A stretch of 64,000 nt of DNA from Myxococcales bacterium (GTDB lineage: Bacteria; Myxococcota_A; UBA9042; UBA3505). Positions 46,380 to 64,000 of the stretch are shown here, piece by piece. Within the stretch, counting starts at the first letter, position 1, and each line of letters opens with the position of its first letter. Below the pieces are notes generated by a model, which saw only the letters and a program-made list of their open reading frames with translations, searched no databases and was not told the origin of the DNA. The position numbers and the translations under genes are program-made. The DNA lies in the NCBI GenBank assembly GCA_002728755.1, contig PBVT01000047.1, positions 186,001 to 250,000 on the forward strand, in the 5' to 3' direction.

Positions 46380-46973
46380 ATGGCTCAGTTCGAGGTCATT
46401 CGGGATATTGGGGAAACGATCAAGGAAATCTTGAAGGATTCCTTCGAGACCAATGGGTTTACAACCGTGCATATAAGCACCGAAAAACCCAAGAAGGACA
46501 ACATCAAGAATCTTCCTACGGTCAACGCATACCTGTATCACGTGTCCTTTGCGCCCAACTACCGGGAGCGCTCCGAAAACCTCGTCTCCGAATACACCGA
46601 GGATGGCGGCATCGTAGAATTTTACAAAGCCGCACCGGTGTATTTCTATGCTCATCTGATTATCAACGTCTGGGGAAATACTCCCAGCGAAGAGAACCTG
46701 TTGATGGGCCTCGCAATCAAAACCCTGTTGGACAAACCAATGGTGACCGGAGAAGAGCTCTCCGGAAATTCGTTCTACCCGGACGACCAACTCAATATCT
46801 ATCCAAACCTTCAGGCGGACTACAACGACACGCTCTCATTCTGGCGTTCATTAAACGAAGAAGTTCGCCCCTCAATGTACTACCACGTCAAATTTCGGAT
46901 CGAATCCGATCGGGTCAGTCGGCCCGTACGCAGAGTGCTTGGCAAGGAGTTTGCAGTGGACAGAAAGCCCTGA
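46380..46973 (+). CDS. CIS DUF4255 protein (Pvc16-like)
   Basis: A 197-residue protein of the DUF4255 family, represented in extracellular contractile injection systems by Pvc16/Afp16, which caps the end of the tube and sheath. Visible family elements are the N-terminal helix MAQFEVIRDIGETIKEIL, LPTVNAYLYHVSFAPNYRER and the late YYHVKFRIES strand. ATG 46380 is chosen because the conserved domain begins there; the frame extends to a TTG at 46353. It is the first structural gene of the CIS locus, followed at 104 bases by sheath 1. An overlapping frame is not the real gene. Confidence 0.85.
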   Translation: MAQFEVIRDIGETIKEILKDSFETNGFTTVHISTEKPKKDNIKNLPTVNAYLYHVSFAPNYRERSENLVSEYTEDGGIVEFYKAAPVYFYAHLIINVWGNTPSEENLLMGLAIKTLLDKPMVTGEELSGNSFYPDDQLNIYPNLQADYNDTLSFWRSLNEEVRPSMYYHVKFRIESDRVSRPVRRVLGKEFAVDRKP

Positions 46974-47077
46974 GGTCTTAACGTCCCAATTCAATCTTTG
47001 TATTCGTACTCTTCGGCTTGCCCGACTCATCCAAAGTTCATGTCTCTCAAATCGAAAACTAGGGAAAGGAGTTAACA

Positions 47078-48250
47078 ATGGCCACATCTTATCTGTCGCC
47101 TGGCGTATACGTCGAAGAGGTCGACCGTGGGACAAAGCCCCTGGAAATGGTGGGCACAAGTACGGTCGCATTTATTGGTGAAAGTAGCGTAGGCCCGGTC
47201 AACGAGCCGGTCTTCATCACCAACTGGTCACAGTTCGTAAAGACATTTGGAGATTTCCAGAATAGCGAACATCTGGCCCATGCCCTGTATGGTTTCTTCA
47301 ACAACGGTGGAGCGCGTGCATTCGTTCTTAACGTAGGCACCGACGACGCCGATGGAGACTCCAAAAAGGAAAAAGGTGGCGGCGGAAAGGCTGCCCGTTA
47401 CGTGGGGGCAGACAAGGGCCCTGGCGCACGTACTGGTCTCAAGGCCTTTGAAGAGATCGACGACATCAATATCGTCTGTGCACCCGGCCAGACCGATCCC
47501 GTAATCTGGGATGCCGTCCTCTCGCATTGTGAAAATATGCGATATCGCTTCGCTATCCTCGATTGCCCCGAGGTCATCGACAAGGGTGGCGTGAATAAGC
47601 TCGTGAAGCCCCGCGACTCCAAGTATGGATCCTATTACTTCCCGTGGGTACAGGTATATGACCCATACAAGGGTAATATCTTCCAGCCCCCGAGTGGCTA
47701 TATGGCTGGCGTCTATGCCCGCTCCGATGCCGAGCGCGGTGTACATAAAGCACCTGCCAACGAAATTGTTCGAGGTGCACTCGAACTTCGATACAACATC
47801 ACCAAAGGGGAACAGGATATCCTTAACCCGAAAGGTATCAACTGCATCCGCGCGTTCCCCAACCGTGGTATTCGCGTATGGGGTGCACGTACAATCTCGT
47901 CCGACGCTTCCTGGCGTTATGTGAACGTTCGTCGCTTGTTCAACATGGTCGAACAGTCTATCGAGATTGGAACCCAGTGGGTTGTATTCGAACCAAACGA
48001 CCAGAAACTCTGGAAACGTATTACCCGCGACATCTCTGCGTTCCTGCTTCGCCTCTGGCGGCAGGGCGCCCTGTTCGGCAAGACTCCGGAAGAGGCGTTC
48101 TTCGTCAAATGTGACGATGAAACCAATCCTCCTGAGGTCATTGATGCTGGCCAGGTCGTTATCGAAATCGGCATGTGCCCAGTGAAGCCCGCCGAATTCG
48201 TAATCTTCCGTATCGGTCAGATGCAAGCAGGAGGAGATATCTCCGAATAA
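47078..48250 (+). CDS. CIS tail sheath protein 1
   Basis: Contractile sheath subunit of a phage-tail-like injection system, 390 residues. It starts with the family pattern YLSPGVYVEEVDRGTKPLEM and ends with the conserved sheath core: IFQPPSGYMAGVYARSD, GVHKAPANE, GIRVWGARTISS, WVVFEPNDQKLW, EAFFVKCDD and CPVKPAEFVIFRI. It has an excellent ribosome site (AAAGGAG, seven bases before ATG). It is shorter than sheath 2 (588) because it lacks the latter's inserted beta domain, so it probably forms the bulk of the sheath. An 11-bp hairpin separates it from tube 1. Confidence 0.94.
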   Translation: MATSYLSPGVYVEEVDRGTKPLEMVGTSTVAFIGESSVGPVNEPVFITNWSQFVKTFGDFQNSEHLAHALYGFFNNGGARAFVLNVGTDDADGDSKKEKGGGGKAARYVGADKGPGARTGLKAFEEIDDINIVCAPGQTDPVIWDAVLSHCENMRYRFAILDCPEVIDKGGVNKLVKPRDSKYGSYYFPWVQVYDPYKGNIFQPPSGYMAGVYARSDAERGVHKAPANEIVRGALELRYNITKGEQDILNPKGINCIRAFPNRGIRVWGARTISSDASWRYVNVRRLFNMVEQSIEIGTQWVVFEPNDQKLWKRITRDISAFLLRLWRQGALFGKTPEEAFFVKCDDETNPPEVIDAGQVVIEIGMCPVKPAEFVIFRIGQMQAGGDISE

Positions 48251-48278
48251 TCTGTACCGTACTCTACCTAGTTTCCGC

Positions 48279-48307: not shown

Positions 48308-48366
48308 GCCCTCCCGAAAGGGAACCCCAAGCTCTATCGACAGTTCAAAGAATGTAGGAGGCAAGA

Positions 48367-48798
48367 ATGCCTAATCGTAGACCAAGTGATCATATTGGTG
48401 CCTTTAACTTCAAAGTAGAAATCGAAGGCGTCACTGTAGGTGCGTTCCGTAATGTGGAAGGCATGGATTCCGAGACCGAGGTAATCGAATACCAGGATGG
48501 TGATGACACCATCGCCCGTAAGCGACCCGGCCGTACCAAGTACAGCAATGTAACCCTTAAGCGTGGGTATACGAATAGCGATGAGCTATGGACCTGGCGT
48601 AAGAAGGTCATCGACGGCGTAGTAGAGCGTAAGTCGGGCTCGGTAATCCTGTGCGACGATACAGGCGACGAGATCATGCGTTACAACTTCTACGAAGCGT
48701 GGCCCTGCAAATGGAAAGGCTTCACTCTCGACGGTCAAGGCAAAGACGTCATGGTCGAAGAGATCGAAATGGCGGTCGAGAAAATCGAGCGCGCATAA
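48367..48798 (+). CDS. CIS tail tube protein 1
   Basis: A 143-residue inner-tube subunit of the T4 gp19/Pvc1 family: SDHIGAFNFKVEIEGVTVGAF, VEGMDSETEVIEYQDGDD, VTLKRGYTNSDELWTWRKKV and YNFYEAWPCKWKGFTLDGQG. Length and motifs are standard. AGGAGG precedes the ATG at a good distance. An intrinsic terminator follows directly, closing the first CIS unit. Confidence 0.94.
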   Translation: MPNRRPSDHIGAFNFKVEIEGVTVGAFRNVEGMDSETEVIEYQDGDDTIARKRPGRTKYSNVTLKRGYTNSDELWTWRKKVIDGVVERKSGSVILCDDTGDEIMRYNFYEAWPCKWKGFTLDGQGKDVMVEEIEMAVEKIERA

Positions 48799-48958: not shown

Positions 48959-49330
48959 ATGGCCTTCAAGACCGAATTCGAGTTCACCTTGCCAAAGGGC
49001 TTCGTGGACAAGGATGGCAATGTTCATCAGAAGGGGGTCATGCGCCTGGCGACGGCGAAGGATGAAATCGTTCCTCTGCAAGACTATCGAGTCCAGAATA
49101 ACAGGGCCTATCTGGTCATCATTCTTCTTTCGCGCGTTATATCCAAGTTGGGCGATCTGACCGCTATCAATCCTGGGGTTATCGAGGGCTTGTATTCATC
49201 GGACCTCGCCTACCTCCAGGAATTCTACCGCAAGATCAACGAGGACGGCAGTGCTGCCGTACCAGTGTCGTGTCCCGAATGTAAGCATAAATTCGAGATC
49301 GACATGGGCAGTGACCTGGGGGAATTGTAA
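48959..49330 (+). CDS. CIS tail-assembly chaperone-like protein
   Basis: A 123-residue protein with no known catalytic motif: N-terminal beta part (FKTEFEFTLPKGFVDKDGNV, RLATAKDEIVPLQDYRVQ), a helical middle (LVIILLSRVISKLGDLTAIN, LAYLQEFYRKIN) and a C-terminal CPECKH half zinc site. Proteins of this size and pattern stand before DUF6760 genes in CIS and phage-tail loci, where they resemble tail-assembly chaperones. GGGGAG ribosome site upstream. Its end overlaps, in another frame, the start of the next small gene, with a run of five G at 49318-49322. Confidence 0.72.
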   Translation: MAFKTEFEFTLPKGFVDKDGNVHQKGVMRLATAKDEIVPLQDYRVQNNRAYLVIILLSRVISKLGDLTAINPGVIEGLYSSDLAYLQEFYRKINEDGSAAVPVSCPECKHKFEIDMGSDLGEL

Positions 49331-49338
49331 GCTATCCA

Positions 49339-49491
49339 TTGGACCGCCTGTACCAGGAAGTCGCCTATATCGCCTATCACTTTCACTGGCCTATCGACGA
49401 CATTCTGGACATGGAACACAAGGAGCGTCAGATCTGGATCAAAGAGATTTCGGAGATCAACAAAGAAATCAATCAATCAAGGTCCACCTGA
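49339..49491 (+). CDS. DUF6760-like small CIS protein
   Basis: A 50-codon frame starting at TTG 49339: LDRLYQEVAYIAYHFHWPID, then DILDMEHKERQIWIKEI. This compact helical pattern (YxEVAYIAYHFHW, then IxxxxHxER-W) is that of the small DUF6760 proteins found in CIS and phage-tail loci. There is no good ribosome site close to the TTG. The frame is open back to 49315, inside the end of the preceding gene, in the -1 frame, so it may be made as an extension of the chaperone-like protein by ribosomal frameshifting, as in phage G/GT proteins (inference). Confidence 0.7.
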   Translation: MDRLYQEVAYIAYHFHWPIDDILDMEHKERQIWIKEISEINKEINQSRST

Positions 49492-49499
49492 CAAACTGG

Positions 49500-49555
49500 T
49501 TCCGAGCCCCGCAGTGGGTAGCAAAAAAAATCATAGGAGAAATCGGGGCTCGGAA
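49500..49555. promoter_or_regulatory. 12-bp inverted repeat upstream of sigma54 promoter
   Basis: TTCCGAGCCCCG at 49500-49511 and its exact reverse complement at 49544-49555, with 32 bases between. Arm centres are 44 bases apart (about four helical turns) and the whole is centred near -73 from the predicted sigma54 start, the usual place for activator binding sites. It could also fold as an RNA hairpin if transcribed from upstream. Confidence 0.6.
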
Positions 49556-49574
49556 TTCAAGGACAGTACATACG

Positions 49575-49590: not shown

Positions 49591-49637
49591 TACGATAATT
49601 ATCGCCTGGGTCGTATAGGACCCAACTTGGAGCCATA

Positions 49638-51404
49638 ATGTTCGATCCCACCTACAGACCACCTGGTATCTACGAACTAGAACCAGAATTAACGATTAGC
49701 CAACCGACGCTTCGAGAGCGTGGTCTCGTTGGCTTCATCGGCTTGGCCGAACGTGGTCCCCTGGACGTGCCGGTTCGAATCGTCGATATCAATCAGTTCT
49801 ACGATATCTACGGGAATCTCGACGAAAAGAGCTACCTGGAGCCTGCAGTACAGGCCTTCTTCAAGAATGGTGGTGCCGAGTGTTATGTGCTTCGAATCGC
49901 TCATACGGATCCACGTAAGCCTGGTGAGATAGCAACCCTTTCGTCCGACCGCTTTCTAAACGCAGACGGTAAACCCTCCATCGACGTATTCGCTATCAAC
50001 GAGGGAGCCTGGGGTAATGTGGTAAATGTAGAGACGTTCCAGTCCGCACAGATCGCACAGACGTTCCTTACCCTCGATCTCAAGAAAGGCCAGACCTCGG
50101 CGACGGTAAAATCGACGCATGGTATTGCAAGAGGGGCCATTCTTCGGGTCTACGATGAGGACGGAAACGAAGAGATCCTCGAAGTCGCCAATATCGAAGG
50201 TCGAGAGGTCCATTTCCAGCCGGGACAAAAGGCGAAGCTGAACCATTCCTCTTCAGCACCAACCTATCTCGAACCCATTGAGTTTGGGATTCGTGTTTCT
50301 TTTCTGGGTCGAGAAGAAATCTTCGACAATGTGAGTCCCGGCCCACGTGCTCAGAACTATTTCGAAACCGTTATCAATGGTCAGAGCTCCATCATCTATG
50401 TGGCAGACCTGAACGAATCGTCCCCTGGATTTGAAACCATTCCCGCGATGGACACCCGTCTGCAGCTCAGCGGGGGCCAGGACGGGCTTCATGGTGTAAG
50501 CCCAGATGACTTCATCGGGAAAAACCTGGGACCCGGAGACCGGTCAGGCATCGCCTCGTTCGAGGTTATTGAAGACGTGGACGTTCTCTGCGCCCCGGAC
50601 TTGATGTGGGCCTATTCCAATAGCACCGGCTTCAATTCCCTGAAGGATATCGAAGTCGTCCAGCAGGCCATGGTCACACAATGTGAAAACCAACGGGACC
50701 GCTTCTGCATACTCGACCTACCGGACGGAAGCTCTCCAAATACCGCCCTTCAATGGCGCCAGCTTTTTGATACAGCCTATGCAGCCTTTTATTTCCCCTG
50801 GGTACAGGTCGACGATGGCCAAGGCCCCTTGTTAATCCCACCTAGTGGCATCGTATCAGGGGTATATGCTCGTTGTGATCTGAACATTGGCCTGCATAAA
50901 GCACCTGCGAACGAGGAACTCCTCGGTGCGCTGGATGTGGCCATCAGCCTGAATGAGACAGACGTCGGCGTATTGAACAACCACGGTATCAACTGCATCC
51001 GTTCCTTTAATGCACGTGGAATACGAGTTTGGGGAGCCCGCACCACCAGTAGCGACCCAATGCAGCAATATATCACCGTACGCAGGGTGATGAGTGCGGC
51101 GATTCGTACACTTCAAACCGATCTCCAATGGGTGATGTTTGAACCCAATAACCCCGCACTCTGGAAGAAGATCCTCCGGAATATTTCCTACTTCCTGTAT
51201 ACTCTCTGGCAGAATGGTTACCTAAAGGGTGGTACGCCGGAGCAGGCCTTCTTTGTAAAATGCGACGAAGACAATAACCCCATTGAATCTCGGGATCGGG
51301 GATATGTCGTTGTAGATGTAGGCTTGGCACCGGTTCGTCCGGCCGAGTTCGTCTTCTTCCGCGTTGTACAAGAAAACGAACTCTCAACCGCTGGACATGC
51401 CTGA
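49638..51404 (+). CDS. CIS tail sheath protein 2 (long form)
   Basis: 588 residues. The N-terminus (YRPPGIYELEP; GLVGFIGLAERGPLDVPVRI) and C-terminal core (LIPPSGIVSGVYARCD, GLHKAPANE, GIRVWGARTTSS, WVMFEPNNPALW, EQAFFVKCDED, PVRPAEFVFFRV) match sheath 1. Between them (about 110-300) is an extra beta domain, as in the longer sheath proteins (Pvc2/Pvc3 type) of known systems, which is expected to face outward. In such systems the minor sheath proteins contact the baseplate. It is the first gene of the sigma54-driven unit. Confidence 0.93.
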   Translation: MFDPTYRPPGIYELEPELTISQPTLRERGLVGFIGLAERGPLDVPVRIVDINQFYDIYGNLDEKSYLEPAVQAFFKNGGAECYVLRIAHTDPRKPGEIATLSSDRFLNADGKPSIDVFAINEGAWGNVVNVETFQSAQIAQTFLTLDLKKGQTSATVKSTHGIARGAILRVYDEDGNEEILEVANIEGREVHFQPGQKAKLNHSSSAPTYLEPIEFGIRVSFLGREEIFDNVSPGPRAQNYFETVINGQSSIIYVADLNESSPGFETIPAMDTRLQLSGGQDGLHGVSPDDFIGKNLGPGDRSGIASFEVIEDVDVLCAPDLMWAYSNSTGFNSLKDIEVVQQAMVTQCENQRDRFCILDLPDGSSPNTALQWRQLFDTAYAAFYFPWVQVDDGQGPLLIPPSGIVSGVYARCDLNIGLHKAPANEELLGALDVAISLNETDVGVLNNHGINCIRSFNARGIRVWGARTTSSDPMQQYITVRRVMSAAIRTLQTDLQWVMFEPNNPALWKKILRNISYFLYTLWQNGYLKGGTPEQAFFVKCDEDNNPIESRDRGYVVVDVGLAPVRPAEFVFFRVVQENELSTAGHA

Positions 51405-51432: not shown

Positions 51433-52260
51433 ATGGCAGACGATAACACCAATAAACCCAACGTTGAGGTCACCGATGACGGCGGCGTTCGCGCCACCGC
51501 GGGACCCGTTACTGCAACTGCGGATGCGAACGCAGTCCAGGGCGCTGTAGGCAAAGCGACGGAGATCGCCAAAGAGGTTGGCAGTGAGGTGGGTGAAGCC
51601 ATCGGTGGCGCCCAACTCGGCGAAGCCCTCGGAAATATGGCCGCGCAAAAGGTCAATCAGTTCCTGGGTGGTATCTTTGGGCAGCAAGCTGCCAGTGCGC
51701 TGGGAGCCGTCAACGAGATGGTCTTTGGTCGCCCCGATCCGCAACTGGCATTCCAATACCTTCTGGAAATCGACGGCGTCGCCAGTGCCGGCTTTAAGGA
51801 ATGCAACGGAATCGAATGGGAGATGGAGGTAAAGAACATCCGATCCGGTGGCAATAACCTCTACGAACATCACCTGCTGGGTCCCGCCAAATTTAAACCT
51901 CTCGAGGTCAAGAGGGGCTTTATGGCGTCCAATGGCGAGTTCTATACCTGGCTAAAAAAATGTCTCAGCTCTGAGACCACCGAAGGTATTCGAACGAGCG
52001 TTTCGTTGGTTATCTATACCGATGGAATGCAAGAGGCCGGACGCTTCAATTTCTACAACGCGTTCATCTCCAAATGGACGGGACCATCTCTGGACGCCGG
52101 CAGTACCGAGATCGCTTTCGAGTCGGCCACCATCGTCTACGATTGGTTCGAATGGCTTCCTGGTGGGGCCATCGCAGAAGCCGCCAAGAAAGCAGGTGGA
52201 GCCGCCGCTGCAGCTGGCCGATCCATCTCTATTGATATTGGTGGCATCTTATCTATCTAG
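51433..52260 (+). CDS. CIS tube protein 2 with long N-terminal extension
   Basis: A 275-residue tube-family protein (gp19-like; Pvc5 position). The tube domain spans about 98-240: PQLAFQYLLEIDGVASAGF, ECNGIEWEMEVKNIRSGG, LEVKRGFMASNGEFYTWLKK and FYNAFISKWTGPSLDAG. Unlike tube 1 (143 residues), it carries about 95 extra N-terminal residues rich in Ala, Gly, Val and Glu with heptad-like helices (AKEVGSEVGEAIGG; AAQKVNQFLGGIFGQQAAS) and a C-terminal Ala/Gly hydrophobic tail. It is likely the first tube ring on the baseplate hub; the extension may fill or plug the lumen (inference). Confidence 0.85.
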   Translation: MADDNTNKPNVEVTDDGGVRATAGPVTATADANAVQGAVGKATEIAKEVGSEVGEAIGGAQLGEALGNMAAQKVNQFLGGIFGQQAASALGAVNEMVFGRPDPQLAFQYLLEIDGVASAGFKECNGIEWEMEVKNIRSGGNNLYEHHLLGPAKFKPLEVKRGFMASNGEFYTWLKKCLSSETTEGIRTSVSLVIYTDGMQEAGRFNFYNAFISKWTGPSLDAGSTEIAFESATIVYDWFEWLPGGAIAEAAKKAGGAAAAAGRSISIDIGGILSI

Positions 52261-52324: not shown

Positions 52325-55252
52325 ATGGCCACTCTGAGTAAAGATCCCCGCGTTATCGACCTGCTCACGGAACTACAATCCGGTCAGCAGGATTGGGCTG
52401 ATCTACCGGGTGGCCAGATACTGGCACAGGCTCTCGCTCTCGCCGATCAGATGATCATGCGGACCGAGCCTTTGACCGCCCTTGTAGACCGAATCTCCCT
52501 GACGGGTGCTCCATTCGTCGATGATATCGGGCTCAAATACGAGAGCATCTCCTCCATCATCAAGGATATCTCTCCCATCGGATCGGCTTTCGAGCAAAGC
52601 CCACTTCTACAACGCTCCACGCGGGCGTTGAATCCCGTACAGCCAGGGTACCAGTTCTTCGATTTTGAAGGCTTGTTGATGGCTAGTCTCGATTGGGGCC
52701 TGGCAGAGGACGTGCACTCGTATGAGCAGGCAGCACAACAAACGCGACGAGAATGGACACTGTTCCAAAATGACCGTGGGAGCCAACAAGTACCGCAGGA
52801 TACACGGTCTCCGATTCTACAAACAGCAGGACGCCGGCCGTACCCCATCGTGCAAGGTTCCGACCCTATCCTGGTCGACGCGGAAGGCGTGGTGGACAGC
52901 CCCCAAATACAACATCGGGTAGATGACGTCCGATTACAGCGTAAGACCTTACCCGGACTATCCGCCGCTTTGGACACTATGGCGCGGTATGCAGATACAC
53001 CCGGCGACGAAGGCTCTCTTACCGCAACATATGGATTCCGGCCGTCTTCCTTTGGAATGAAACCATCGGTTCTCGATCAAACGTTCGTTCAACCCCAGAC
53101 CGAGTGGGAAGCCGAAAATGATCTACAGGCTGGCCCTTCGTCACAGGCACCGATTCGGCGCTGGTCTCTGGGCAAAGCCATAACAAAAGCCAGTACAGAG
53201 GAGGCGGGAAGCCGCCGGCTGCCCCTTTCCATCGAACCGCCAGTGCCTGGAGAGAGCCGAAGCCTCGAAGAGTTCTCCATCGATCGCTCCTTCCTACCCG
53301 CTCTAGTATCTGGACTGGATGAGGCTGCTCACCAGATCGGTGGAACGACTGGGCAGGAAAATGCAGCGTCCCGCTTCTCCATCGCAAACCTGGACTCGAT
53401 GGTGCAGGCTCTGAAACTCTCCTCGCCAACGGAAAGTCAGCTACCACTGTTGTTGGACACACCAGATATGAATCTGGTCATCCCCGCTACAGAGGACCTG
53501 GAGTCCGAACTGTCCATCGCCTCGCTCGTTCCGCAGACGACAAAGAAAGCGGTAGCAAGGCCGCTTGAGCAGGACATTCTGGTCCAACAGGCCCTCTCTA
53601 CCCGACTCGCACAAACGCTTGCTCCCGAGAGTGTCTCCGCCGAACCGACGGCCGTAATGGAGCAGCTTGGATTTGAGCCCCAGATTGGGAGTCCGATAGT
53701 ACAACGTCTACCCGATACGGTGGAACAGCGAGCCAATCTCGCAGGGATCACCCCTGAGGTACTATTCAGTCTCGTTACGCAGCCAGCTGTGGCCCAAGCA
53801 CTTGCCCAAGGCCCCGACGCATTCTTTTCTCGTCTAGAGCAACGGTCCGCGACGGGCGCGGGTGCAATCTATAAGGATGCTCCCTGGTCCTTGGACGCGA
53901 CCCTTCTGGATCTCGACGAGTACGATACCGACGATGCGATTCAAGAGACGACAATCTCCGAAACTACAGCAAAGCCTTCATTATTTGCCTCGAATTCCAT
54001 TCGCGACATCATAACCCGGGCAGCGCGGAAAGCGGGGCCGGGCGGCGACGAGTTGGCGCCTCGTCTAGTGCAGAGGATCGGAAGACAATTCGATCCAACA
54101 CAGGTAGCCAGCACCGTCACCAATATGTTGACAGCGCAAGAGTTAACGGAGCTCGTTTCTACCCCGGGACTCAGTGATCGGTTCTCCAACGCTCTCCGCC
54201 AGGAACTAAAAGCCAGCGGCATCCAAGACGCAGCTCTACTCTCTCTCCCAGAGGCCATTGCGGGCCAGAAGCAAATCGCTTCCCCTGCCTCCGATCTCCA
54301 ACCCCGAGAGTCGATTCAGATGGCGGCTAAACTAGCCCGCCGGGTTGGCCGAAACCTACGAAAAGTGATGTCGGAACGTATGGCTGGTTTACCGCTCGCA
54401 GGTTTTCAGTGGGAACATGGGCCGCGAGTGCAAACGCTTGAAACCACCATCCAACGGATGATGGAGCAGCGCCAGGCAGAATCACCTACGCGCTCCAGTC
54501 TACCCGGTGAAACAACCGCAGCGTGGATGGACTCGGAACCGACGACCTTCGTAGAGCCCTGGCTTGAGGAGGCCGTCGAATTCTCGATCTCCTCGGAAGT
54601 ACAACAGTCAGCGAAACAGGCGAAAGGCCAAGCCACACCAAGCGATGAGCTGGGCCTGGCCTTTGGGCGGGCATGGAAACGTCCAGGCGAAGTATCCATG
54701 CGGCTTCGCACCTTGATGGCCGCATCTGAAACGTCGGACTCTGCCCATCTCGATCAGATCTTCGGCTGGTCGGATCTGGCCCATGTAGACACGAAACCTT
54801 CTGGTCAAAAACCAGATGTATATGCACCCCTGGACTCAGGTGCCCGTCGCTCAAGCTTTGATTCCTCCAGTATGCCCATGCCCGATCTGGGCGAGCGAGT
54901 AGAAGCACGTGGCGAGGCGGTTCCCCTCGGTCTTACACCGACAGGAAGCAATATGGACCTTGGTCGACTGGCCCATGTCATGTTGCGGCCGACGGCCAAC
55001 ATCCAACGGGACCTGAACCTCGTCAGTCCTATTACCCAGGTAATGGCACAGGGAGCGCATTTGAAAGAGGCTGACGAACCTGTAGCAGAGGCTCAACCAG
55101 CGCAACAATCGGAACAAGGCGGAGAAAAAGGCGGTGGTGGTTCCGATAATCTTACGGACGAAGTGGTGGAGCTTTTGAGCCACCAAATCGCTTCAAAGAT
55201 CGGGCATCGTATCAAGCTCGACCGGGATCGTGGGGGATCGTGGGATCTCTAA
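52325..55252 (+). CDS. Large unknown CIS protein (975 residues)
   Basis: No homologous family recognised. The protein is rich in Ser, Gln, Pro, Leu and Ala, has no transmembrane helix, and looks largely disordered with short amphipathic helices, including repeated RIGRQF/LARRVGRNLRKV-type segments. The C-terminus (NLTDEVVELLSHQIASKIG, then HRIKLDRDRGG) resembles the short conserved tail of small proteins found between tube and LysM genes in other CIS loci. Position between tube 2 and the LysM protein fits an expanded version of that baseplate component. Tape measure or lumen cargo are alternatives. No ribosome site is obvious. Confidence 0.6.
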   Translation: MATLSKDPRVIDLLTELQSGQQDWADLPGGQILAQALALADQMIMRTEPLTALVDRISLTGAPFVDDIGLKYESISSIIKDISPIGSAFEQSPLLQRSTRALNPVQPGYQFFDFEGLLMASLDWGLAEDVHSYEQAAQQTRREWTLFQNDRGSQQVPQDTRSPILQTAGRRPYPIVQGSDPILVDAEGVVDSPQIQHRVDDVRLQRKTLPGLSAALDTMARYADTPGDEGSLTATYGFRPSSFGMKPSVLDQTFVQPQTEWEAENDLQAGPSSQAPIRRWSLGKAITKASTEEAGSRRLPLSIEPPVPGESRSLEEFSIDRSFLPALVSGLDEAAHQIGGTTGQENAASRFSIANLDSMVQALKLSSPTESQLPLLLDTPDMNLVIPATEDLESELSIASLVPQTTKKAVARPLEQDILVQQALSTRLAQTLAPESVSAEPTAVMEQLGFEPQIGSPIVQRLPDTVEQRANLAGITPEVLFSLVTQPAVAQALAQGPDAFFSRLEQRSATGAGAIYKDAPWSLDATLLDLDEYDTDDAIQETTISETTAKPSLFASNSIRDIITRAARKAGPGGDELAPRLVQRIGRQFDPTQVASTVTNMLTAQELTELVSTPGLSDRFSNALRQELKASGIQDAALLSLPEAIAGQKQIASPASDLQPRESIQMAAKLARRVGRNLRKVMSERMAGLPLAGFQWEHGPRVQTLETTIQRMMEQRQAESPTRSSLPGETTAAWMDSEPTTFVEPWLEEAVEFSISSEVQQSAKQAKGQATPSDELGLAFGRAWKRPGEVSMRLRTLMAASETSDSAHLDQIFGWSDLAHVDTKPSGQKPDVYAPLDSGARRSSFDSSSMPMPDLGERVEARGEAVPLGLTPTGSNMDLGRLAHVMLRPTANIQRDLNLVSPITQVMAQGAHLKEADEPVAEAQPAQQSEQGGEKGGGGSDNLTDEVVELLSHQIASKIGHRIKLDRDRGGSWDL

Positions 55253-57441: not shown

Positions 57442-57843
57442 ATGAAGAAGAATTTCCTCGGAAAAGGGCTCGGGTTTCCACTCCGCGTAACAAACCGCGG
57501 TGAGTTGGCATTATCCGAAGGCGAGCAATCCATAGCCGAAAGCATTCGGCTCATCATCGGTACGGCTCCCGGTGAGCGGGTTATGCGACCAGATTTCGGA
57601 TGCAGAATCCACGAGATTGTCTTCCACCCCAATAACCCAAGTACAGCTTCGCTCGCCGCCTATTATATTCAGGAAGCGCTGATCAAATGGGAACCCAGGA
57701 TTCGCCAGGTCAAAGTCGATGCCTATCCTGATCCGTCGTCAGAGAACGTGCTACAGCTGAGCATCCGGTATCAGATCATCACGACAAATAACGTGAAGAA
57801 CATGGTATATCCTTTCTATCTCCGTAGAGAGGAGGTCCTATGA
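57442..57843 (+). CDS. CIS baseplate wedge protein, gp25-like
   Basis: 133 residues of the gp25/GPW (Pvc9) family, a baseplate wedge protein that helps start sheath polymerisation. Family markers: LGKGLGFPLRV, a central SIRLIIGTAPGERVMRPDFG (with the typical EXR-like GERVMRPDFGC) and the late EPRIRQVKVDAYPDP. The ATG of the baseplate J gene overlaps its stop (ATGA), so they are coupled. Confidence 0.93.
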   Translation: MKKNFLGKGLGFPLRVTNRGELALSEGEQSIAESIRLIIGTAPGERVMRPDFGCRIHEIVFHPNNPSTASLAAYYIQEALIKWEPRIRQVKVDAYPDPSSENVLQLSIRYQIITTNNVKNMVYPFYLRREEVL

Positions 57844-60824
57844 TACCCAAGCCGAATCTAGATGATCGCACGTTTCAGGATATCGTAGACGAAGCAATTC
57901 GCTTGATTCCCCAGTATTGTCCCGAATGGAACAACCTGAACCCATCCGACCCTGGGGTAGCGCTCATCGAGCTCTTCGCATGGATGACGGAGATCATGCT
58001 CTATCGGCTCAATCGCGTGCCGGAGAAAAATCTTCTCACCTTCCTGGAGCTGATGGGTATCGAGCCACGCCCGCCGCAACCTGCGCATACGGTGTTAACC
58101 TTCGAGCTCAATGAACGAGCCGATAGTGTAGACATTCCCGCTCGCCTACCGGTCGAGACTCGGCCCACGGCAGAAGATCGGGCGGTGGTCTTTGAGACGG
58201 TGCGTGCTTTTACCGCAACAAACGCCAAAATTCAGGGTGCGTTTACGCAATACCACGATGACTTCTCGAACCACACCGAGGCCCTGGCGAACCCGACCGA
58301 GAGTATTGAACCCTTTCTAGGGGTTCGTACGATTGATCGCTTTATCTACATCGCGGACAGTCGTTTCCAATATCTGACCTCACCGTCTCTTCTGACGGTT
58401 GAATTCGAGGTCCCGGCGTCAAGCGATAAAGAAATCACGCGCTCACTCTCCTGGAGTTTCTGGGACGGCGAGCGATGGACGGAACTTGATGAAGCACCTA
58501 TCGACATGCCAGCAAATTTTGCAGCTTTCGAAGGGCCGATTCCAATCGAAACATCGGAACAAAATGGTCAGGAAGGGTATTGGATACGGGCCCAGCTTGC
58601 AGAAATCCCTGATGAGTCCGTCGTCCTTGAAGGCATCCGTGCCCGGGTCGAAGTGCGAGGCGATGGGCTGGTACCGGACAAGCTATTCCTGAATCCAGAA
58701 GAAACCCTTTTTGTCCCGCTAGATTCCGAACGGAATGTGCACGTCCTGGGTCGTGAACCATCCGTCGAAAGTACCCTGTATATTGCCGCAAACGACCTGT
58801 TCGCGATGCCCAATGTCATGGTCAAGATAGAGGCCTCCCTCGTAGAGCAATCCATTGCCCCCAGGCCAACCCCGTCGGAAGACCTGGAGCTGGCCTGGGA
58901 ATTCCACGATGGAAAACGGTGGCGTCCCCTCGGGAAAACCGGACCTGGCGTCAAAAAGACCGTCGACGCGTACGGGTTTGAGGACAATACGCAGGCCTTC
59001 ATGCAATCCGGAATCATTCGGTTTATGCGTCCCAAGACAATGAAAGCTGTGAAAGTAAACGGCATAGAAGCCATGTGGGTTCGATGTCGGATTCTTTCCG
59101 GTGATTATGGAGCTCCGGGAACATACGAGCTCGATGGGGACCGATGGGTATGGCACGAAGACCGACCTCTCACTCCTCCGGTGCTCAAGTATCTAGCGCT
59201 CAAATTCCAGGAAGAAGATCGATCGGTAGAAAACGTACTCTCCTACAACGACTTTCAACTGGTTGATCATTCACAGGACGCAGCACGTGAAGGACGTTCT
59301 ATCGAACCGTTCAGCGTGACATCGGAAGAATGTCCCACCTTCTACCTTTGTTTTGACCAGATGTTCCCACATGGTCAGAGCCATCTCTATGTTCGGGTCG
59401 ACGAGCATGACGAAAGTCGTGTGGGTGGTATCGCAGGTGAAGGTAACGCAGATCCAGACGCCTTGAACCTACAAGAGCAATCTCTCGTATGGGAATATTG
59501 GGACGGACGCCGCTGGCGTGACCTTCCCGTCGAAGACAACACTCGTAATCTAACGCAGAGTGGCTTCATCTCCTTCATCGCTCCGAAGAAACAAGGGGAA
59601 GGAAAGCGATTCGGAATAAGTGGTCATTGGTATCGTGTACGCCTGGAGATGGGTGGTTACCATGTGCCACCAAAGATTCAGGCCATCCAACTGAATGCGG
59701 TCGACGCCTACAATATGACCACGTTCGAGGAAAGCATACTTGGCAATAGCGAAGCACTGCCAAACCAAACATATAATTTCCCGAGAGGACCTGTTCTCGC
59801 TGGGCAACATGTTCATGTCATTGAAAAAGAAAAACCCTCGGCGAAGGAAACCCGGGTGGTTGAAGGTCACTTCGGAAAAAAGGCGATCGTGGAACACCCG
59901 GATGGTGGTTGGCGAGTGCCGTGGATCGAAGTCGACAACTTCTTTGAGTCCGAGGCGACTTCGCGACATTACGTAAAAGACACCATGACCAATGAAATCC
60001 GATTTGGTGATGGTATCAAGGGTAAGATTCCACCGAAGGGCGCTCGAAATATTCGAGCTCGTATGTACCAGGTCGGTGGAGGCGAGCGCGGAAACGTTGC
60101 CTCCCAGAGCATCGTCGTGATGCGTAAACCTCTGGCCTATGTAGAGGGAGTAACCAACCCCTATCCAGCTACGGGCGGGAGCGACATTGAGACGGTGGAA
60201 TCTGTAATTCAACGCGGTCCCTATATTCTGAAGAGCCGCCAGCGCGCCGTTACAGCCGAAGACTTCGAGTGGTTGTCAAAGCAAGCAAGCCCGAGCGTCG
60301 CTCGTGTGAAATGCCTGCCAACGAAAGACCGAGAGGGGGAAGTGAGCGTTGTCATCGTTCCTTCCATCCCAAAGGGTCACTCCGACTTTATGAATAAGCC
60401 GGTTCCGTCTCTCGCACTATTGCGCCAGGTAAAAAAGCAGTTGAACCGGCATAAATTGGTGACGACCATTCTGCACGTGCGGAAACCGCGCTACCGAGAG
60501 TTTGATGTCGAGGTTGAGGTCTACCGTCGAGCGACGGGACCTAGCCAGCGTCTAAATCGAGAGATCGACAGCTCCGTTCGCATGTTCACTCACCCCCTCG
60601 CAGGTGGACGTGATCAGATGGGCTGGCCCTTTGGACGGAGTATCTACAAGGTCGACCTGTTCCATGTAATCGAAGAGGTTCCAGACGTAGATCTCGTTCA
60701 CCGTATTCATATCTTTGATGTTCAGGAAGAACGTGAGGTTGATTACCTCCACCTGAACGAAGATGAACTTCCATTCGTTCGCAATATCAGCATCACCGAA
60801 CGTAGCCGCGAACAAATCCTTTAG
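57840..60824 (+). CDS. CIS baseplate J-like protein (Pvc11-like)
   Basis: A 994-residue baseplate wedge protein. The N-terminus is the standard one: LDDRTFQDIVDEAIRLIPQY, then WNNLNPSDPGVALIELFAWM and LYRLNRVPEKN. Central beta domains with repeated DGxRWxxL motifs (WEYWDGRRWRDL, WEFHDGKRWRPL, WSFWDGERWTEL) are visible. The C-terminal part includes LKSRQRAVTAEDFEWLSKQA and VARVKCLPTKDREGEVSVVI, the conserved J-like core. In known systems the family is Pvc11/gpJ and forms the baseplate ring. PASTA-gpI follows nine bases on. Confidence 0.92.
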   Translation: MIPKPNLDDRTFQDIVDEAIRLIPQYCPEWNNLNPSDPGVALIELFAWMTEIMLYRLNRVPEKNLLTFLELMGIEPRPPQPAHTVLTFELNERADSVDIPARLPVETRPTAEDRAVVFETVRAFTATNAKIQGAFTQYHDDFSNHTEALANPTESIEPFLGVRTIDRFIYIADSRFQYLTSPSLLTVEFEVPASSDKEITRSLSWSFWDGERWTELDEAPIDMPANFAAFEGPIPIETSEQNGQEGYWIRAQLAEIPDESVVLEGIRARVEVRGDGLVPDKLFLNPEETLFVPLDSERNVHVLGREPSVESTLYIAANDLFAMPNVMVKIEASLVEQSIAPRPTPSEDLELAWEFHDGKRWRPLGKTGPGVKKTVDAYGFEDNTQAFMQSGIIRFMRPKTMKAVKVNGIEAMWVRCRILSGDYGAPGTYELDGDRWVWHEDRPLTPPVLKYLALKFQEEDRSVENVLSYNDFQLVDHSQDAAREGRSIEPFSVTSEECPTFYLCFDQMFPHGQSHLYVRVDEHDESRVGGIAGEGNADPDALNLQEQSLVWEYWDGRRWRDLPVEDNTRNLTQSGFISFIAPKKQGEGKRFGISGHWYRVRLEMGGYHVPPKIQAIQLNAVDAYNMTTFEESILGNSEALPNQTYNFPRGPVLAGQHVHVIEKEKPSAKETRVVEGHFGKKAIVEHPDGGWRVPWIEVDNFFESEATSRHYVKDTMTNEIRFGDGIKGKIPPKGARNIRARMYQVGGGERGNVASQSIVVMRKPLAYVEGVTNPYPATGGSDIETVESVIQRGPYILKSRQRAVTAEDFEWLSKQASPSVARVKCLPTKDREGEVSVVIVPSIPKGHSDFMNKPVPSLALLRQVKKQLNRHKLVTTILHVRKPRYREFDVEVEVYRRATGPSQRLNREIDSSVRMFTHPLAGGRDQMGWPFGRSIYKVDLFHVIEEVPDVDLVHRIHIFDVQEEREVDYLHLNEDELPFVRNISITERSREQIL

Positions 60825-60832: not shown

Positions 60833-61744
60833 ATGCCCACAACCCAGACACAAACGAACATATCCAAGAGAAGCGTCGTTCCCGACGTAAAGGATGTTCA
60901 TATGGCCTCGGCCATTCTTATGCTCCGGAATGCTGGGTTCGAGAGGTACACCTACCGCTTTACGGAAACGTATGCCCGAGATTATGCGGTCGTTCATCAA
61001 TCGCCTGCTGCCGGCTCTCTCATGGACATCCAAACCGAAGTGTCCCTGGACGTAGCCCAAACCAATTGGGTGAATTTTCTACCCACGGCGTTCCGGCAGA
61101 GCGATATGGAAAGTCCGGATTTTCTCCGGAACTTCCTATTCATTTTCCAACACCTGCACGCCCAGACCGAGATCAAGATCCAGGATCTTCATAAGATCTT
61201 CGATCCTCTCGAAACCGAGCCAGACTTTATTCCATGGTTGGCCGGTTGGGTGGGCCTGGTTATGGCTCCCGAATGGGATGAAGATACGCGCCGACGATGG
61301 GTGCGTGATGCACCACGACTGTACGCAAGACGTGGAACCCGCGATGCCCTGCTCGAACATATCCGAGTCTTTACGGGCCTAGAAGCTGACATCGAAGAAA
61401 ATCGTTGGCCATACCCAGGTTTTCGCGTTGGCGTTTTCGGTATGGTCGGCATCGACTCCATCGTCACCCCAACCATTGCAAGGGAACATGCATTTATCGT
61501 GCATATCCCCGTCCAATACGAAGAGATTTCAACCCAGAAACTTCTTCGGCTCCATCAGGTAATCCAGATGGAAAAGCCAGCCCATACAATCTACTTCGTC
61601 CAGTTCCAGAAAGATGAACATCACGAACGACAACGTGCCTTTCTGGCGGTGGGCGAACAGGCGATTGGCGTCAAAGCCGAAAGTGCCGAGACCCCCAATT
61701 CTGACAACACCGACTCGAACAATGCTGGAGGTCAAACCCAATGA
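60833..61744 (+). CDS. PASTA-gpI fusion, CIS baseplate wedge (Pvc12-like)
   Basis: 303 residues. The N-terminal part (about 15-80) looks like a PASTA domain: SVVPDVKDVHMASAILMLRN, then AGF, VVHQSPAAG and VSLDVAQ. After it comes the gpI tail-protein core: NFLPTAFRQSDMESPDFLRN, LFIFQHLHAQTEIKIQDLHK, FIPWLAGWVGLVM, YARRGTRDALLEHIRVFTG. PASTA domains bind cell-wall fragments in kinases and penicillin-binding proteins; I know of no such domain at the N-terminus of this wedge protein in the model systems. The tail is Asn/Ser-rich. The next gene overlaps by four bases. Confidence 0.85.
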   Translation: MPTTQTQTNISKRSVVPDVKDVHMASAILMLRNAGFERYTYRFTETYARDYAVVHQSPAAGSLMDIQTEVSLDVAQTNWVNFLPTAFRQSDMESPDFLRNFLFIFQHLHAQTEIKIQDLHKIFDPLETEPDFIPWLAGWVGLVMAPEWDEDTRRRWVRDAPRLYARRGTRDALLEHIRVFTGLEADIEENRWPYPGFRVGVFGMVGIDSIVTPTIAREHAFIVHIPVQYEEISTQKLLRLHQVIQMEKPAHTIYFVQFQKDEHHERQRAFLAVGEQAIGVKAESAETPNSDNTDSNNAGGQTQ

Positions 61745-63276
61745 CCGACCTGTCTAAAGCGTTTAAAAGAATAAACTTTTTCCGCGGTTTTCTGGCCACG
61801 GAGGAGGACTTTAACGACGCAACAGCCTATCACGTGGAAAAACATCGACTGCACAATCGCCTTTGCCATGGGCTCGGGATTGTCCCCGGATTCCTGGGAG
61901 ATCTTCGCGTTCAGGCGCGAGGTAAAGGAGAACTGGCCGTCGAAGTGCTGCCAGGTATCGCTGTCGATGGAAATGGTAATGAAATTCTGATCTCAGACCC
62001 CGAGATTAAAGCCATCAATCCACTCGACTACAAGCTCCCACAGACCATCTATATCGTGGCGAAGCATGTGGAAGAGTTAACCGACTTTATTACCTATAAA
62101 GAGAATCTTGAATTCAAAGGGCACAGGCGCATATCAGAACTCTCTCGGATCGAGGCACAAATCGTCGAACCGGATGCAGCAGATGGGGTTGAGCTCGCTC
62201 GTATTCAACTTGCTCCGGGCGTACGGCGCATAACCGATGCCAAGAACCCACAAGCCCCCGCCGAAAATGAAATAGACCTGCGATTCTCCCCCAAGGCCGG
62301 TGTTGTAGGGAGTCGACTATCCACGACGTTCCGAAATGACTTGATGGATCTTACGCTGGAGATGCAGGAGATCTACGCATTTCTTTTCCAGGTCCAGGGA
62401 ATTACCACGGCAGCAGACGTAGACCACTCCTTGATCACCCTGCGCATGCTATTCCATAGCCATCTTGTCGATGCCTGGAATCTATACCCGCTTCTCGGTG
62501 ATGTTCTACGCCTACAATGGACATTTATTGAAGATGTCGAGGCCAACTATGGCCAGTTCAGTAGCCGAAAAGAGTTCGTATCGTTAAAGCGTCATATCGA
62601 ACTTCTAGAGAGCTACCGAAAAGAAGGGCGACGCGACCAGGAATTCCTCGATACGTTCGTAGCGTATGAGCGAAAAGGCGTAGAGAATATGCGTGCCATC
62701 TTCTCTGAACGCCTCAAAAAGGTGGTTAAAGAAGCCGTCGCAGATACTCCATTGGCCCAGGTTGCTGAGAAGCTCAAAGTACACAGCAAGACATTCAAAA
62801 AGACCATGACTGTCGAAGGGGTGAAGCTCTCTCGTATCGACGAAATCGATATTCTAGAGCCCGATAGTGAAAAGGCTCATGGCTTCAAGATCATTGACGC
62901 CCGCGACAAATACCGGAGTCGTCAAAAGCTTAAATACCCCGACGGGACCGTTGTCGAAGATGTGGGTATTGCCTATGAAGGTGGAAAATGTGAGTTCAAG
63001 CTCACGAATGTGGTTCCTGGTCACCCCGTTCTCATATTCGTCCGAATGGATTATGTGCGAGGTGATTGGGAGGCCGACATGGAAGTCAATGGACGCAAAG
63101 CAGGTACCATGCGCTGTGCAGGAGAAGACGTAAAATACCGCTGGCGCAACTGGCCATTCCTCATCGAAAGCGATTACGTAAACGACGTGGAGTTGACCAT
63201 AACTCAGACACCGACGACCGAAGAGCGCGACATCAATTACTTCCATGTCTGGGCATACCAACCCGCGGGTAAATGA
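61741..63276 (+). CDS. CIS-associated accessory protein of unknown role
   Basis: A 511-residue protein in the CIS operon (ATGA overlap with the wedge gene). The first 90 residues have the pattern INFFRGFLATEEDFNDATAY, then EKHRLHNRLCHGLGIVPG, which recurs in accessory proteins beside phage-tail and CIS baseplate genes. A helical middle (about 200-350) and a C-terminal beta-sandwich (KCEFKLTNVVPGHPVLIFVR, NYFHVWAYQPAG) follow. Possible roles are a baseplate-attached receptor arm or collar. Function unproven. A gap of 143 bases to the next gene has no clear promoter. Confidence 0.72.
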   Translation: MTDLSKAFKRINFFRGFLATEEDFNDATAYHVEKHRLHNRLCHGLGIVPGFLGDLRVQARGKGELAVEVLPGIAVDGNGNEILISDPEIKAINPLDYKLPQTIYIVAKHVEELTDFITYKENLEFKGHRRISELSRIEAQIVEPDAADGVELARIQLAPGVRRITDAKNPQAPAENEIDLRFSPKAGVVGSRLSTTFRNDLMDLTLEMQEIYAFLFQVQGITTAADVDHSLITLRMLFHSHLVDAWNLYPLLGDVLRLQWTFIEDVEANYGQFSSRKEFVSLKRHIELLESYRKEGRRDQEFLDTFVAYERKGVENMRAIFSERLKKVVKEAVADTPLAQVAEKLKVHSKTFKKTMTVEGVKLSRIDEIDILEPDSEKAHGFKIIDARDKYRSRQKLKYPDGTVVEDVGIAYEGGKCEFKLTNVVPGHPVLIFVRMDYVRGDWEADMEVNGRKAGTMRCAGEDVKYRWRNWPFLIESDYVNDVELTITQTPTTEERDINYFHVWAYQPAGK

Positions 63277-63419
63277 CCATAACGGGTCAGCTTGAGGCTA
63301 GAACATGGCTTGCATGGGGATCAGGGAACGTGCGAAGATCAGATACTCTTCTTCCCGATATGCGAGTTTTCTATGCCAGATAGAGCTGCATTCAACCGTA
63401 TCCATCGAAAGGTGACGGT

Positions 63420-64000
63420 ATGAATCCATTCTCCGGCTTGAACCGCTGGTTCAAACAATTGGCTTTCGGGCGCGTTCGAGGAGCGAAGGCGTCAACGAAA
63501 GGAAAGCTGATGGGAAAACAAGCCCGCGCAAAAGGCAAGGTTGCGGGTTCATTCAATAAGGGTGTTGACGGAGCCGTCAAAGGAGCCAAGAATAAGGCTA
63601 CAGGCAAAGGAAAAGGAAAGAAGAACAAACAGGACAGCAGCAACACGGGAAGATCCGGCGCTGCGCCAAGAAAACAGGAAAGCCGGAAGCAAGAAAGCCG
63701 GAAGCAGGAACAGAAAATGGGTATTTTCGGTCGAAACAAAAATAAGCCTCCGGAACATGATGAATCCGAGGTCGCATCATCGGACGAAAAAACACAGATG
63801 GTAGATATGGGCGACGTATCCGCGCCTGTAGCAGAATGTGTCGGATGGGTCGTTATGTGGAATGGACCATTCCGAGGAAGAGACTTTCGGCTCGAGCCAG
63901 GAAAAAATGAAATGGGGACGGATGCCGATTGCGCAGTCGTTCTTACAGATCCCTATTCATCAGGAAAACATTGCGTCATTCGGTTTGATTCAGAGGACCA
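63420..64000 (+). CDS. FHA-domain protein, 3' end outside window
   Basis: ATG 63420 with AAAGGTG upstream; 193 residues are visible before the window ends. The first ~100 residues are strongly basic and low in complexity (MNPFSGLNRWFKQLAF, then Gly/Lys/Ala-rich and KQESRKQES repeats), then an acidic linker, then the start of an FHA domain: FRGRDFRLEPGKNEMGTDAD, VVLTDPYSSGKHCVI. FHA domains bind phosphothreonine; FHA proteins control firing or assembly in some type VI systems. Its position at the end of the CIS genes suggests a regulatory or anchoring role here (inference). Confidence 0.8.
   Translation, partial: MNPFSGLNRWFKQLAFGRVRGAKASTKGKLMGKQARAKGKVAGSFNKGVDGAVKGAKNKATGKGKGKKNKQDSSNTGRSGAAPRKQESRKQESRKQEQKMGIFGRNKNKPPEHDESEVASSDEKTQMVDMGDVSAPVAECVGWVVMWNGPFRGRDFRLEPGKNEMGTDADCAVVLTDPYSSGKHCVIRFDSED

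What the first reader, a model, noticed from the sequence alone, without database searches (positions are those of the whole stretch)
46380..64000. Contractile injection system with an unusual gene set
Seen: DUF4255, sheath 1, tube 1, chaperone-like plus DUF6760, sheath 2, extended tube 2, 975-residue unknown, LysM, hub, gp25, J-like, PASTA-gpI, accessory, FHA. The order follows extracellular CIS of the Pvc/Afp kind, but several parts are not in the model loci: the FHA protein, the PASTA fusion, the giant 975-residue protein and the chaperone-like pair. The AAA+ ATPase, tape measure, spike and fibre genes are not in the window. It may be a distinct CIS subtype, possibly tethered to or acting inside the producing cell.
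Basis: partly seen in the sequence, partly recalled or inferred. Interest (0 to 1): 0.8.

Follow-up and report, generated by a model that had tools for sequence, protein, structure and literature searches.

The report
Membrane-linked contractile injection system in Myxococcota
The stretch encodes a real, intact phage-tail-like injection machine found across almost a whole class of uncultured Myxococcota and, with the same extra inner-membrane genes, in Planctomycetota and Spirochaetota; the extra genes suggest a machine tied to its own cell's membrane rather than one released outside.

Summary
Confirmed, with corrections. Window 46380-64000 is an intact contractile injection system (CIS) whose last gene ends at 65672, outside the window. 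Closest solved relatives are the Streptomyces coelicolor (type IId) and haloarchaeal CIS, not Pvc/Afp. It is no prophage: 43 of 52 same-class genomes hold a sheath gene and 40 a J match.

Three of the "unusual" parts have explanations. The chaperone/DUF6760 pair is a phage-type tail-assembly chaperone, probably made by -1 ribosomal frameshifting at GGGGGAA. The 975-residue protein sits where the Streptomyces tape-measure-related effector lies. The 511-residue accessory has the TssK fold of type VI baseplates. Spike, PAAR, candidate AAA+ ATPases and eCIS_core (DUF4157) proteins are encoded elsewhere in the genome.

What is new is an FHA protein plus a vWA-TM-FHA inner-membrane protein after the baseplate genes in Myxococcota, with counterparts in Planctomycetota and Spirochaetota; five loci outside that J clade lack them. 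Small eCIS_core proteins also share the 975-residue protein's C-terminal helix (p about 1e-10 against control C-termini), a candidate docking signal.

Best reading: a membrane-docked CIS. Docking is inferred; firing direction is unknown.

The parts
46380..46973 (+). Cis16 / DUF4255 (Pvc16_N) tail terminator (cap)
   Evidence: Pfam PF14065 E 1.7e-19; homologues in the same place
47078..48250 (+). Sheath 1 (390 aa)
   Evidence: PF04984 E 1e-20; 454 bits to 8bky, S. coelicolor Cis2
48367..48798 (+). Tube 1 (gp19-like, TIGR02241)
   Evidence: PF06841 E 4e-41, TIGR02241 E 4.5e-36
48959..49330 (+). Tail assembly chaperone, zero-frame product
   Evidence: phrog_508 E 8.5e-6
49318..49324 (+). GGGGGAA, candidate -1 frameshift site just before the chaperone stop
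   Evidence: same heptamer in 34 of 38 chaperone rows of several phyla; known phage slippery motif
49318..49491 (+). DUF6760 in the -1 frame, C-terminal extension of the chaperone
   Evidence: PF20546 E 7e-15
49638..51404 (+). Sheath 2 (588 aa)
   Evidence: PF04984 E 2e-20; 308 bits to 8bky
51433..52260 (+). Tube 2 with N-terminal extension of about 100 aa
   Evidence: PF06841 E 6e-30 at residues 106-239
52325..55252 (+). 975-aa tape-measure-like lumen protein (BIG) with conserved C-terminal helix
   Evidence: no family hit; constant position, variable length; C-terminal helix
55303..56058 (+). Cis7, tube adaptor with LysM
   Evidence: CIS_tube E 5e-23, LysM E 9e-5
56074..57297 (+). Hub (GPD), without the OB-fold spike part
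   Evidence: PF05954 E 7e-9; matches residues 32-349 of the 643-aa S. coelicolor Cis8
57442..57843 (+). Cis9, gp25
   Evidence: PF04965 E 3.5e-27
57840..60824 (+). Cis11, J-like baseplate protein
   Evidence: TIGR02243 E 3.5e-104; 265 bits to 9gtp_1K
60833..61744 (+). Cis12, Tail_P2_I (TIGR02242) with N-terminal PASTA domain
   Evidence: PASTA in 21 of 29 homologues
61741..63276 (+). 511-aa TssK-fold baseplate protein (eBAP3-like)
   Evidence: model pLDDT 86; TssK top PDB hits, E 1.4e-7 and 3.5e-6
63420..64000 (+). FHA1, basic N-terminus plus FHA (gene ends at 64136; followed by the vWA-TM-FHA gene 64137-65672, outside the window)
   Evidence: FHA E 1.5e-18 and 1.3e-18; topology

Best explanation
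A chromosomal contractile injection system, conserved across its class and related to the Streptomyces (type IId) and haloarchaeal CIS. Shown from sequence: a full cap/sheath/tube/baseplate set; a T6SS-like baseplate (Tail_P2_I protein plus a protein predicted to have the TssK fold); a soluble FHA protein and a predicted bitopic vWA-TM-FHA protein encoded next to the baseplate genes, where Streptomyces encodes its membrane adaptor CisA; unlinked spike, PAAR, candidate AAA+ ATPase and eCIS_core genes. Inferred: the particle assembles in the cytoplasm, with the frameshifted chaperone guarding the 975-aa tape-measure-like lumen protein; eCIS_core cargo docks through the C-terminal helix it shares with that protein, helped by the ATPase; the baseplate is held at the cytoplasmic face of the inner membrane by contacts between the TssK-like protein, FHA1 and vWA-TM-FHA, and fires from that anchored state. 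The FHA domains most likely act as a scaffold (as in YscD or T6SS Fha), since the phosphate-binding arginine is often missing. Whether the shot crosses the cell's own envelope into a neighbour or breaches the producer is undecided; I slightly favour outward firing.
For: Gene order conserved in the class with sheath in 43/52 and J in 40/52 genomes. Both FHA1 and vWA-TM follow the 511-aa gene in 24/38 Myxococcota, 4/5 Planctomycetota and 4/5 Spirochaetota loci with room, and 0/5 loci outside the clade. Signal peptide plus single TM near residue 375 in class homologues. TssK is the only strong solved-fold match of the 511-aa N-terminal 345 residues, while canonical TssK (PF05936) is in only 2 of 52 class genomes and not in this one. 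CisA, in the same position in S. coelicolor, is a bitopic membrane protein needed for contraction (PMC12237407). eCIS_core follows sheath presence (Fisher p 7e-6) and shares the BIG C-terminal helix. Frameshift site.
Against: No interaction was tested. The TssK match is by predicted fold only, TM-score about 0.4; sequence profiles do not see it. A TssK-like fold is also reported for fibres of released eCIS, and the C-terminal domain resembles carbohydrate-binding modules. 13 of 38 Myxococcota-clade loci lack the module next door, though for most class genomes a homologue exists elsewhere. The vWA part is weak in the window's own copy (Pfam VWA E 0.054). Co-occurrence is not corrected for shared ancestry.
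Confidence: 0.58

Rival explanations
1. A released eCIS: the 511-aa protein is a short eBAP3-type tail fibre whose C-terminal beta-sandwich binds sugars on a target cell, and the FHA genes regulate expression or assembly without anchoring the particle.
For: eBAP3 fibres follow Tail_P2_I genes and resemble TssK (PMC12923769); weak CIS13 hit at the N-terminus; C-terminal domain matches CBM35/CBM6 folds.
Against: The C-terminal domain is conserved rather than diverse (52% mean pairwise identity in Myxococcota, invariant residues in three phyla); one such gene per locus in the clade, against several in 3 of 5 loci outside it; a conserved inner-membrane protein is encoded next to it.
Confidence: 0.2
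2. A Streptomyces-like cytoplasmic CIS that, on stress, contacts the producer's own membrane through the vWA-TM-FHA protein (a CisA analogue) and brings about regulated cell death or content release.
For: Nearest solved relatives are from S. coelicolor; positional analogue of CisA; no fibre array.
Against: Two sheaths, a hub without the spike domain and a TssK-fold protein with a conserved C-terminal domain differ from CISSc; homology with CisA was not tested; nothing here speaks for cell death.
Confidence: 0.2
3. A decayed prophage or tailocin.
For: Phage-like genes, including a chaperone with a frameshift site.
Against: All frames intact; no head, packaging or integrase gene recognised in the CIS stretch; conserved in most of a class and in other phyla, in part as two unlinked modules, with a PhaR-like gene downstream in G000, G008 and G012.
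Confidence: 0.02

Closest known systems
Streptomyces coelicolor CIS (CISSc, type IId; PDB 8BKY, 9GTP/9GTR/9GTS) with membrane protein CisA
   Same: Closest solved sheath, J, hub and Tail_P2_I protein; no tape-measure gene of the Afp14 kind; [quoted passage not shown]
   Different: Two sheath genes; hub lacks the OB-fold spike part; PASTA on Tail_P2_I; TssK-fold protein; membrane protein has vWA and FHA domains where CisA has a disordered N-terminus and a substrate-binding-like C-terminal domain; ATPase and spike unlinked
Haloarchaeal T6SS-like CIS (Halogeometricum borinquense, clade IIa, PDB 9EZM)
   Same: Sheath nearly as close (415 bits); no plug or tape-measure homologue; T6SS-like mode correlated with a clade-conserved membrane protein
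   Different: Its anchor candidate has six TM helices and lies upstream of the core genes; its ATPase, toxins and immunity genes are in the cluster
eBAP3-type eCIS with Tail_P2_I baseplate (PMC12923769)
   Same: Tail_P2_I gene followed by a protein with TssK-like fold
   Different: Single conserved C-terminal domain here; followed by the FHA / vWA-TM module; their domain profile was not run here
Type VI secretion system (TssK, Fha)
   Same: TssK-like fold at the baseplate; FHA protein; candidate membrane linkage
   Different: No PF05936 TssK in this genome; phage/eCIS-type sheath, cap and chaperone; membrane protein unlike TssJLM
Tme, tapemeasure-related effector of Streptomyces davawensis (PMC11126660)
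   Same: Largest ORF of the cluster up to the baseplate genes, directly upstream of the tube-adaptor/hub genes
   Different: The 975-aa protein has no eCIS_core/DUF4157 match and no recognised nuclease domain; here eCIS_core is on separate proteins that share its C-terminal helix

Membership tests
Contractile injection system (CIS) | Sheath, tube, hub, gp25, J-type baseplate and cap genes in one locus | tested here: met
   conserved order
Pvc/Afp-type eCIS | AAA+ ATPase, Afp14-type tape measure and fibre genes in the locus | tested here: not met
   none recognised in or next to the locus; two-AAA ATPases elsewhere in the genome
Pvc/Afp-type eCIS | Core proteins closest to Pvc/Afp | tested here: not met
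   sheath and J far closer to S. coelicolor
Pvc/Afp-type eCIS | Particle released to the outside | not testable with these tools
   needs microscopy
CISSc / type IId | Core proteins closest to S. coelicolor CIS | tested here: met
   no tree against dbeCIS subtypes could be made
CISSc / type IId | CisA homologue | not tested
   only position and single-pass topology compared
CISSc / type IId | One-piece VgrG-like Cis8 with OB-fold spike | tested here: not met
   hub covers residues 32-349 of 643; separate spike gene
Type VI secretion system i-iii | TssK by sequence family (PF05936) | tested here: not met
   absent from this genome; 2 of 52 class genomes
Type VI secretion system i-iii | TssK-type baseplate fold | tested here: met
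   predicted model only: E 1.4e-7 whole protein, 3.5e-6 N-terminal part
Type VI secretion system i-iii | TssJLM membrane complex | not tested
   not searched
Phage-type tail assembly chaperone with -1 frameshift | Slippery site in the overlap, second frame without its own start | tested here: met
   frameshifting itself not measured, no downstream RNA structure
Tape-measure protein | Length sets tube length | not testable with these tools
   position, size and chaperone only; composition not coiled-coil-like
Phospho-threonine-binding FHA | Conserved phosphate-binding arginine | tested here: inconclusive
   Arg in the vWA-TM-FHA protein of this genome and in 9 of 28 sequences where the motif was read; Ser or Ala in the others; never Arg in the 19 FHA1 sequences read

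The most novel reading that the evidence does not exclude
A CIS clade in Myxococcota, Planctomycetota and Spirochaetota has arrived on its own at a membrane-docked, T6SS-like way of working: a TssK-fold baseplate protein joined to a two-protein FHA / vWA-TM module that takes the place of fibres, with cargo proteins that dock in the tube by a C-terminal helix shared with the tape-measure-like protein.
Probability: 0.4. Interest if true: 0.82.

Novelty: new variant of a known kind. Interest (0 to 1): 0.64.

Why it matters
How a CIS is held (released outside, on a thylakoid, free in the cytoplasm, at the cell membrane) decides what it does, and few anchors are known. A conserved, testable anchor candidate present in cultured spirochaetes (Breznakiella homolactica, Alkalispirochaeta alkalica) would let anchoring be tested directly. 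The C-terminal helix shared by the lumen protein and eCIS_core proteins gives a concrete hypothesis for what the widespread eCIS_core (DUF4157) proteins attach to, a question the eCIS papers leave open. The conserved frameshift site links these bacterial machines to phage tail assembly.

Tried and rejected
Prophage/tailocin: rejected (no head genes recognised, conserved class-wide). 46322-46981 and 49251-49598 as genes: rejected, wrong frames over Cis16 and DUF6760. BIG C-terminal helix against solved structures for a Cis6 plug: only designed repeat proteins and chance hits, no CIS plug. BIG as a coiled-coil tape measure from composition: not supported, few amphipathic helical windows and 7% proline, so the tape-measure reading rests on position, length and the chaperone. 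TssK link by sequence profile: nothing (only three TssK sequences). RNA structure after the slippery site: none, folds worse than shuffles. Promoter and terminator scan: nothing above chance. A phospho-threonine switch as the general role of the FHA domains: weakened by the missing arginine. In the library searched I found no paper that describes FHA genes of CIS loci, frameshifting in CIS, or Treponema eCIS.
Full report
OBSERVATION. The window is G000:C37:186001-250000 of a 4.14 Mb, 133-contig genome. Reading the contig beyond the window shows that the locus ends at window coordinate 65672. It holds 16 collinear reading frames on the + strand from 46380, none of them broken: Cis16 (DUF4255), sheath 1, tube 1, chaperone, DUF6760, sheath 2, tube 2, a 975-aa protein ('BIG'), LysM adaptor, hub, gp25, J, PASTA-Tail_P2_I, a 511-aa protein, FHA1 and vWA-TM-FHA. 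Next come an unrelated pair on the other strand (one a PhaR-like regulator) and a DnaK gene.

NOT A PROPHAGE, AND NOT RARE. J matches are found in 40 of 52 genomes of the same class (most full length at 42-48% identity, a few partial), and PF04984 sheath in 43, mostly as two genes. The gene order is the same across families. In family f6 and in some other genomes the locus is cut into two modules on different contigs, Cis16...hub and gp25-J-gpI-511, for instance G019 contig C19 against C4. A tree of J puts Myxococcota, Planctomycetota and Spirochaetota copies, for the most part phylum by phylum, within one clade (support 97), with Acidobacteriota, Verrucomicrobiota, Chloroflexota and Actinomycetota copies and a few stray ones outside it (quick method, long branch of the window's own row).

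WHICH CIS. By sequence the nearest solved proteins are those of Streptomyces coelicolor (sheath 8bky 454 bits, J 9gtp_1K 265, hub 9gtr 49, gpI profile 9gtp_E), then the haloarchaeal sheath 9ezm (415 bits); Pvc2 scores 204 (entries identified).

THE CHAPERONE PAIR. In the typical case the chaperone gene ends CTG GGG GAA TCG TAA. DUF6760 lies in the -1 frame and reads on as GGG GGA ATC GTA = GGIVSYPL... GGGGGAA stands at this place in 34 of 38 chaperone rows (four rows are second views of the same genomes), including spirochaetes and distant CIS. Three of the four exceptions are second chaperone-like ORFs in spirochaetes; the fourth (L174) has a T-run there. In several relatives the -1 frame has a stop one to nine codons upstream and no ATG, GTG or TTG before the conserved domain. 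GGGGGAA is an observed slippery motif of phage frameshift genes (PMC10885494). I infer -1 programmed frameshifting, as in phage tail assembly chaperones. No downstream RNA structure was found, and the paper search showed none that ties CIS to frameshifting.

THE 975-RESIDUE PROTEIN. Its position is constant (tube 2 - BIG - LysM adaptor). Length runs from 975 to about 1,800 aa among intact copies of the class, and to 2,129 aa in L146. Sequence is hardly conserved except for a C-terminal helix (LxALAxKIARSVMxRIKRERERRG in one family) that also ends the equivalent protein in distant CIS. Position, size and a dedicated chaperone make it tape-measure-like; Streptomyces davawensis has a tapemeasure-related effector, Tme, immediately upstream of its baseplate genes (PMC11126660). 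A search of the whole genome with the helix profile returned BIG itself and, second (E 0.0087), the C-terminus of a 221-aa eCIS_core (DUF4157) protein at C8. Of 20 small eCIS_core proteins taken from other class genomes, most end in the same kind of helix. The 21 C-termini score above 681 control C-termini (p 1e-10) and above shuffles of themselves (p 3e-9); 11 of 21 exceed 99% of shuffles, against 7 of 681 controls, two of which are BIG copies. Reading this as a common docking signal is inference.

UNLINKED PARTS. A gp5-like spike (271 aa) lies about 105 kb upstream of the CIS genes on the same contig, which fits a hub that covers only the first half of Streptomyces Cis8. A PAAR protein is at C81. 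A two-AAA-domain ATPase at C52 sits directly upstream of a 729-aa eCIS_core protein; relatives of it lie in or near CIS loci of L166 and G076, and paralogues at C75 and C56. That any of these serves this CIS is inference. eCIS_core proteins are in 44 of 52 class genomes and in none of 14 control genomes; presence follows the sheath (41 both, 7 neither, 4 one only; Fisher p 7e-6, not corrected for ancestry).

THE BASEPLATE END. The 511-aa protein is predicted (pLDDT 86) as a beta shoulder, a helical bundle and a C-terminal beta-sandwich. Foldseek against the PDB gives TssK of the T6SS first (5y0e, E 1.4e-7). With residues 1-345 alone the first 14 hits are TssK or Francisella IglD (E 3.5e-6 to 3.6e-4); below them come only weaker TssK chains and the Anabaena CIS baseplate, then nothing under E 0.6. 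TM-scores are about 0.4, and profile comparison with three TssK sequences finds nothing, so this is a fold-level statement. A TssK-like fold in Tail_P2_I-type CIS was reported for eBAP3 fibres (PMC12923769), so this is a known kind of part. In Myxococcota its C-terminal domain is conserved (52% mean pairwise identity, against 61% for the shoulder and 33% for the bundle) and carries invariant residues across three phyla, which speaks for a fixed partner rather than a changing target.

THE FHA MODULE. FHA1 has a basic N-terminus in this class and a Cys-rich, zinc-ribbon-like one in Planctomycetota and Spirochaetota, followed by FHA. The second protein has an N-terminal signal-like segment, a vWA domain (weak in the window's own copy), one TM near residue 375 and a cytoplasmic FHA; in spirochaetes the tail after the TM is a zinc-ribbon-like segment without FHA. 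In Planctomycetota the second protein is longer, with two or three hydrophobic segments, so the likeness there is looser. Both genes follow the 511-aa gene in 24 of 38 Myxococcota-clade loci with room, 4 of 5 Planctomycetota and 4 of 5 Spirochaetota, and in none of 5 loci outside the clade; homologues elsewhere in the genome were found for most class genomes without the adjacent pair. The same place holds CisA in S. coelicolor, a bitopic protein needed for contraction (PMC12237407). The pThr-binding arginine is often absent, and the FHA-bearing copies also match the YscD cytoplasmic-domain family, so a scaffold role is likelier than a phospho-switch for most members. In the T6SS of Acidovorax citrulli, Fha is an assembly scaffold acted on by an inner-membrane kinase (PMC12607579).

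VERDICT. Shown: an intact, conserved CIS; a conserved frameshift signature; a predicted TssK fold; a conserved FHA / vWA-TM module; co-occurrence with eCIS_core proteins and a shared C-terminal helix. Inferred: membrane docking (about 0.6), tape-measure role of BIG, helix as docking signal, direction of firing. The system is a new variant of a known kind.

Noticed in passing
G022:C118, G018:C119, G030:C23, G004:C14, G040:C12, G028:C478, G043:C890 and others: Many genomes of family f5 hold an eCIS_core protein in a giant open frame of about 3,700 to 4,650 aa, besides a small eCIS_core protein of about 270-350 aa.
   Followed up: no
L145, L139, L140: Cultured spirochaetes carry a rearranged form of this CIS: Treponema lecithinolyticum, Breznakiella homolactica and Alkalispirochaeta alkalica. 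The paper search found no description of an eCIS in Treponema.
   Followed up: partly
L133, L135: Metagenome bins titled 'Klebsiella pneumoniae' and 'Anaeromyxobacter dehalogenans' carry class-type copies of this locus; the titles are probably wrong or the bins mixed.
   Followed up: no
L004:9098-13140 (window coordinates 71098-75140, outside the window): Two neighbouring paralogues, predicted secreted, with EGF-like segments and CxxCH motifs; the second has a long run of TTTGED-type repeats.
   Followed up: no
L177:6467-9778 (G000:C81): PAAR protein of 105 aa beside a 668-aa protein whose N-terminus looks like DUF2169 (from memory, not tested), a possible separate effector-loading pair.
   Followed up: no
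G002:C126, C271, C13: One class genome has five sheath matches on three contigs, so it probably holds more than one CIS.
   Followed up: no
45701-46246: A 181-aa, probably secreted protein just upstream of the CIS has a counterpart in the same place in G015.
   Followed up: no
L174:171-560: In this distant planctomycete CIS the chaperone ends in CTTTTTTGG instead of GGGGGAA, another slippery-looking run.
   Followed up: no
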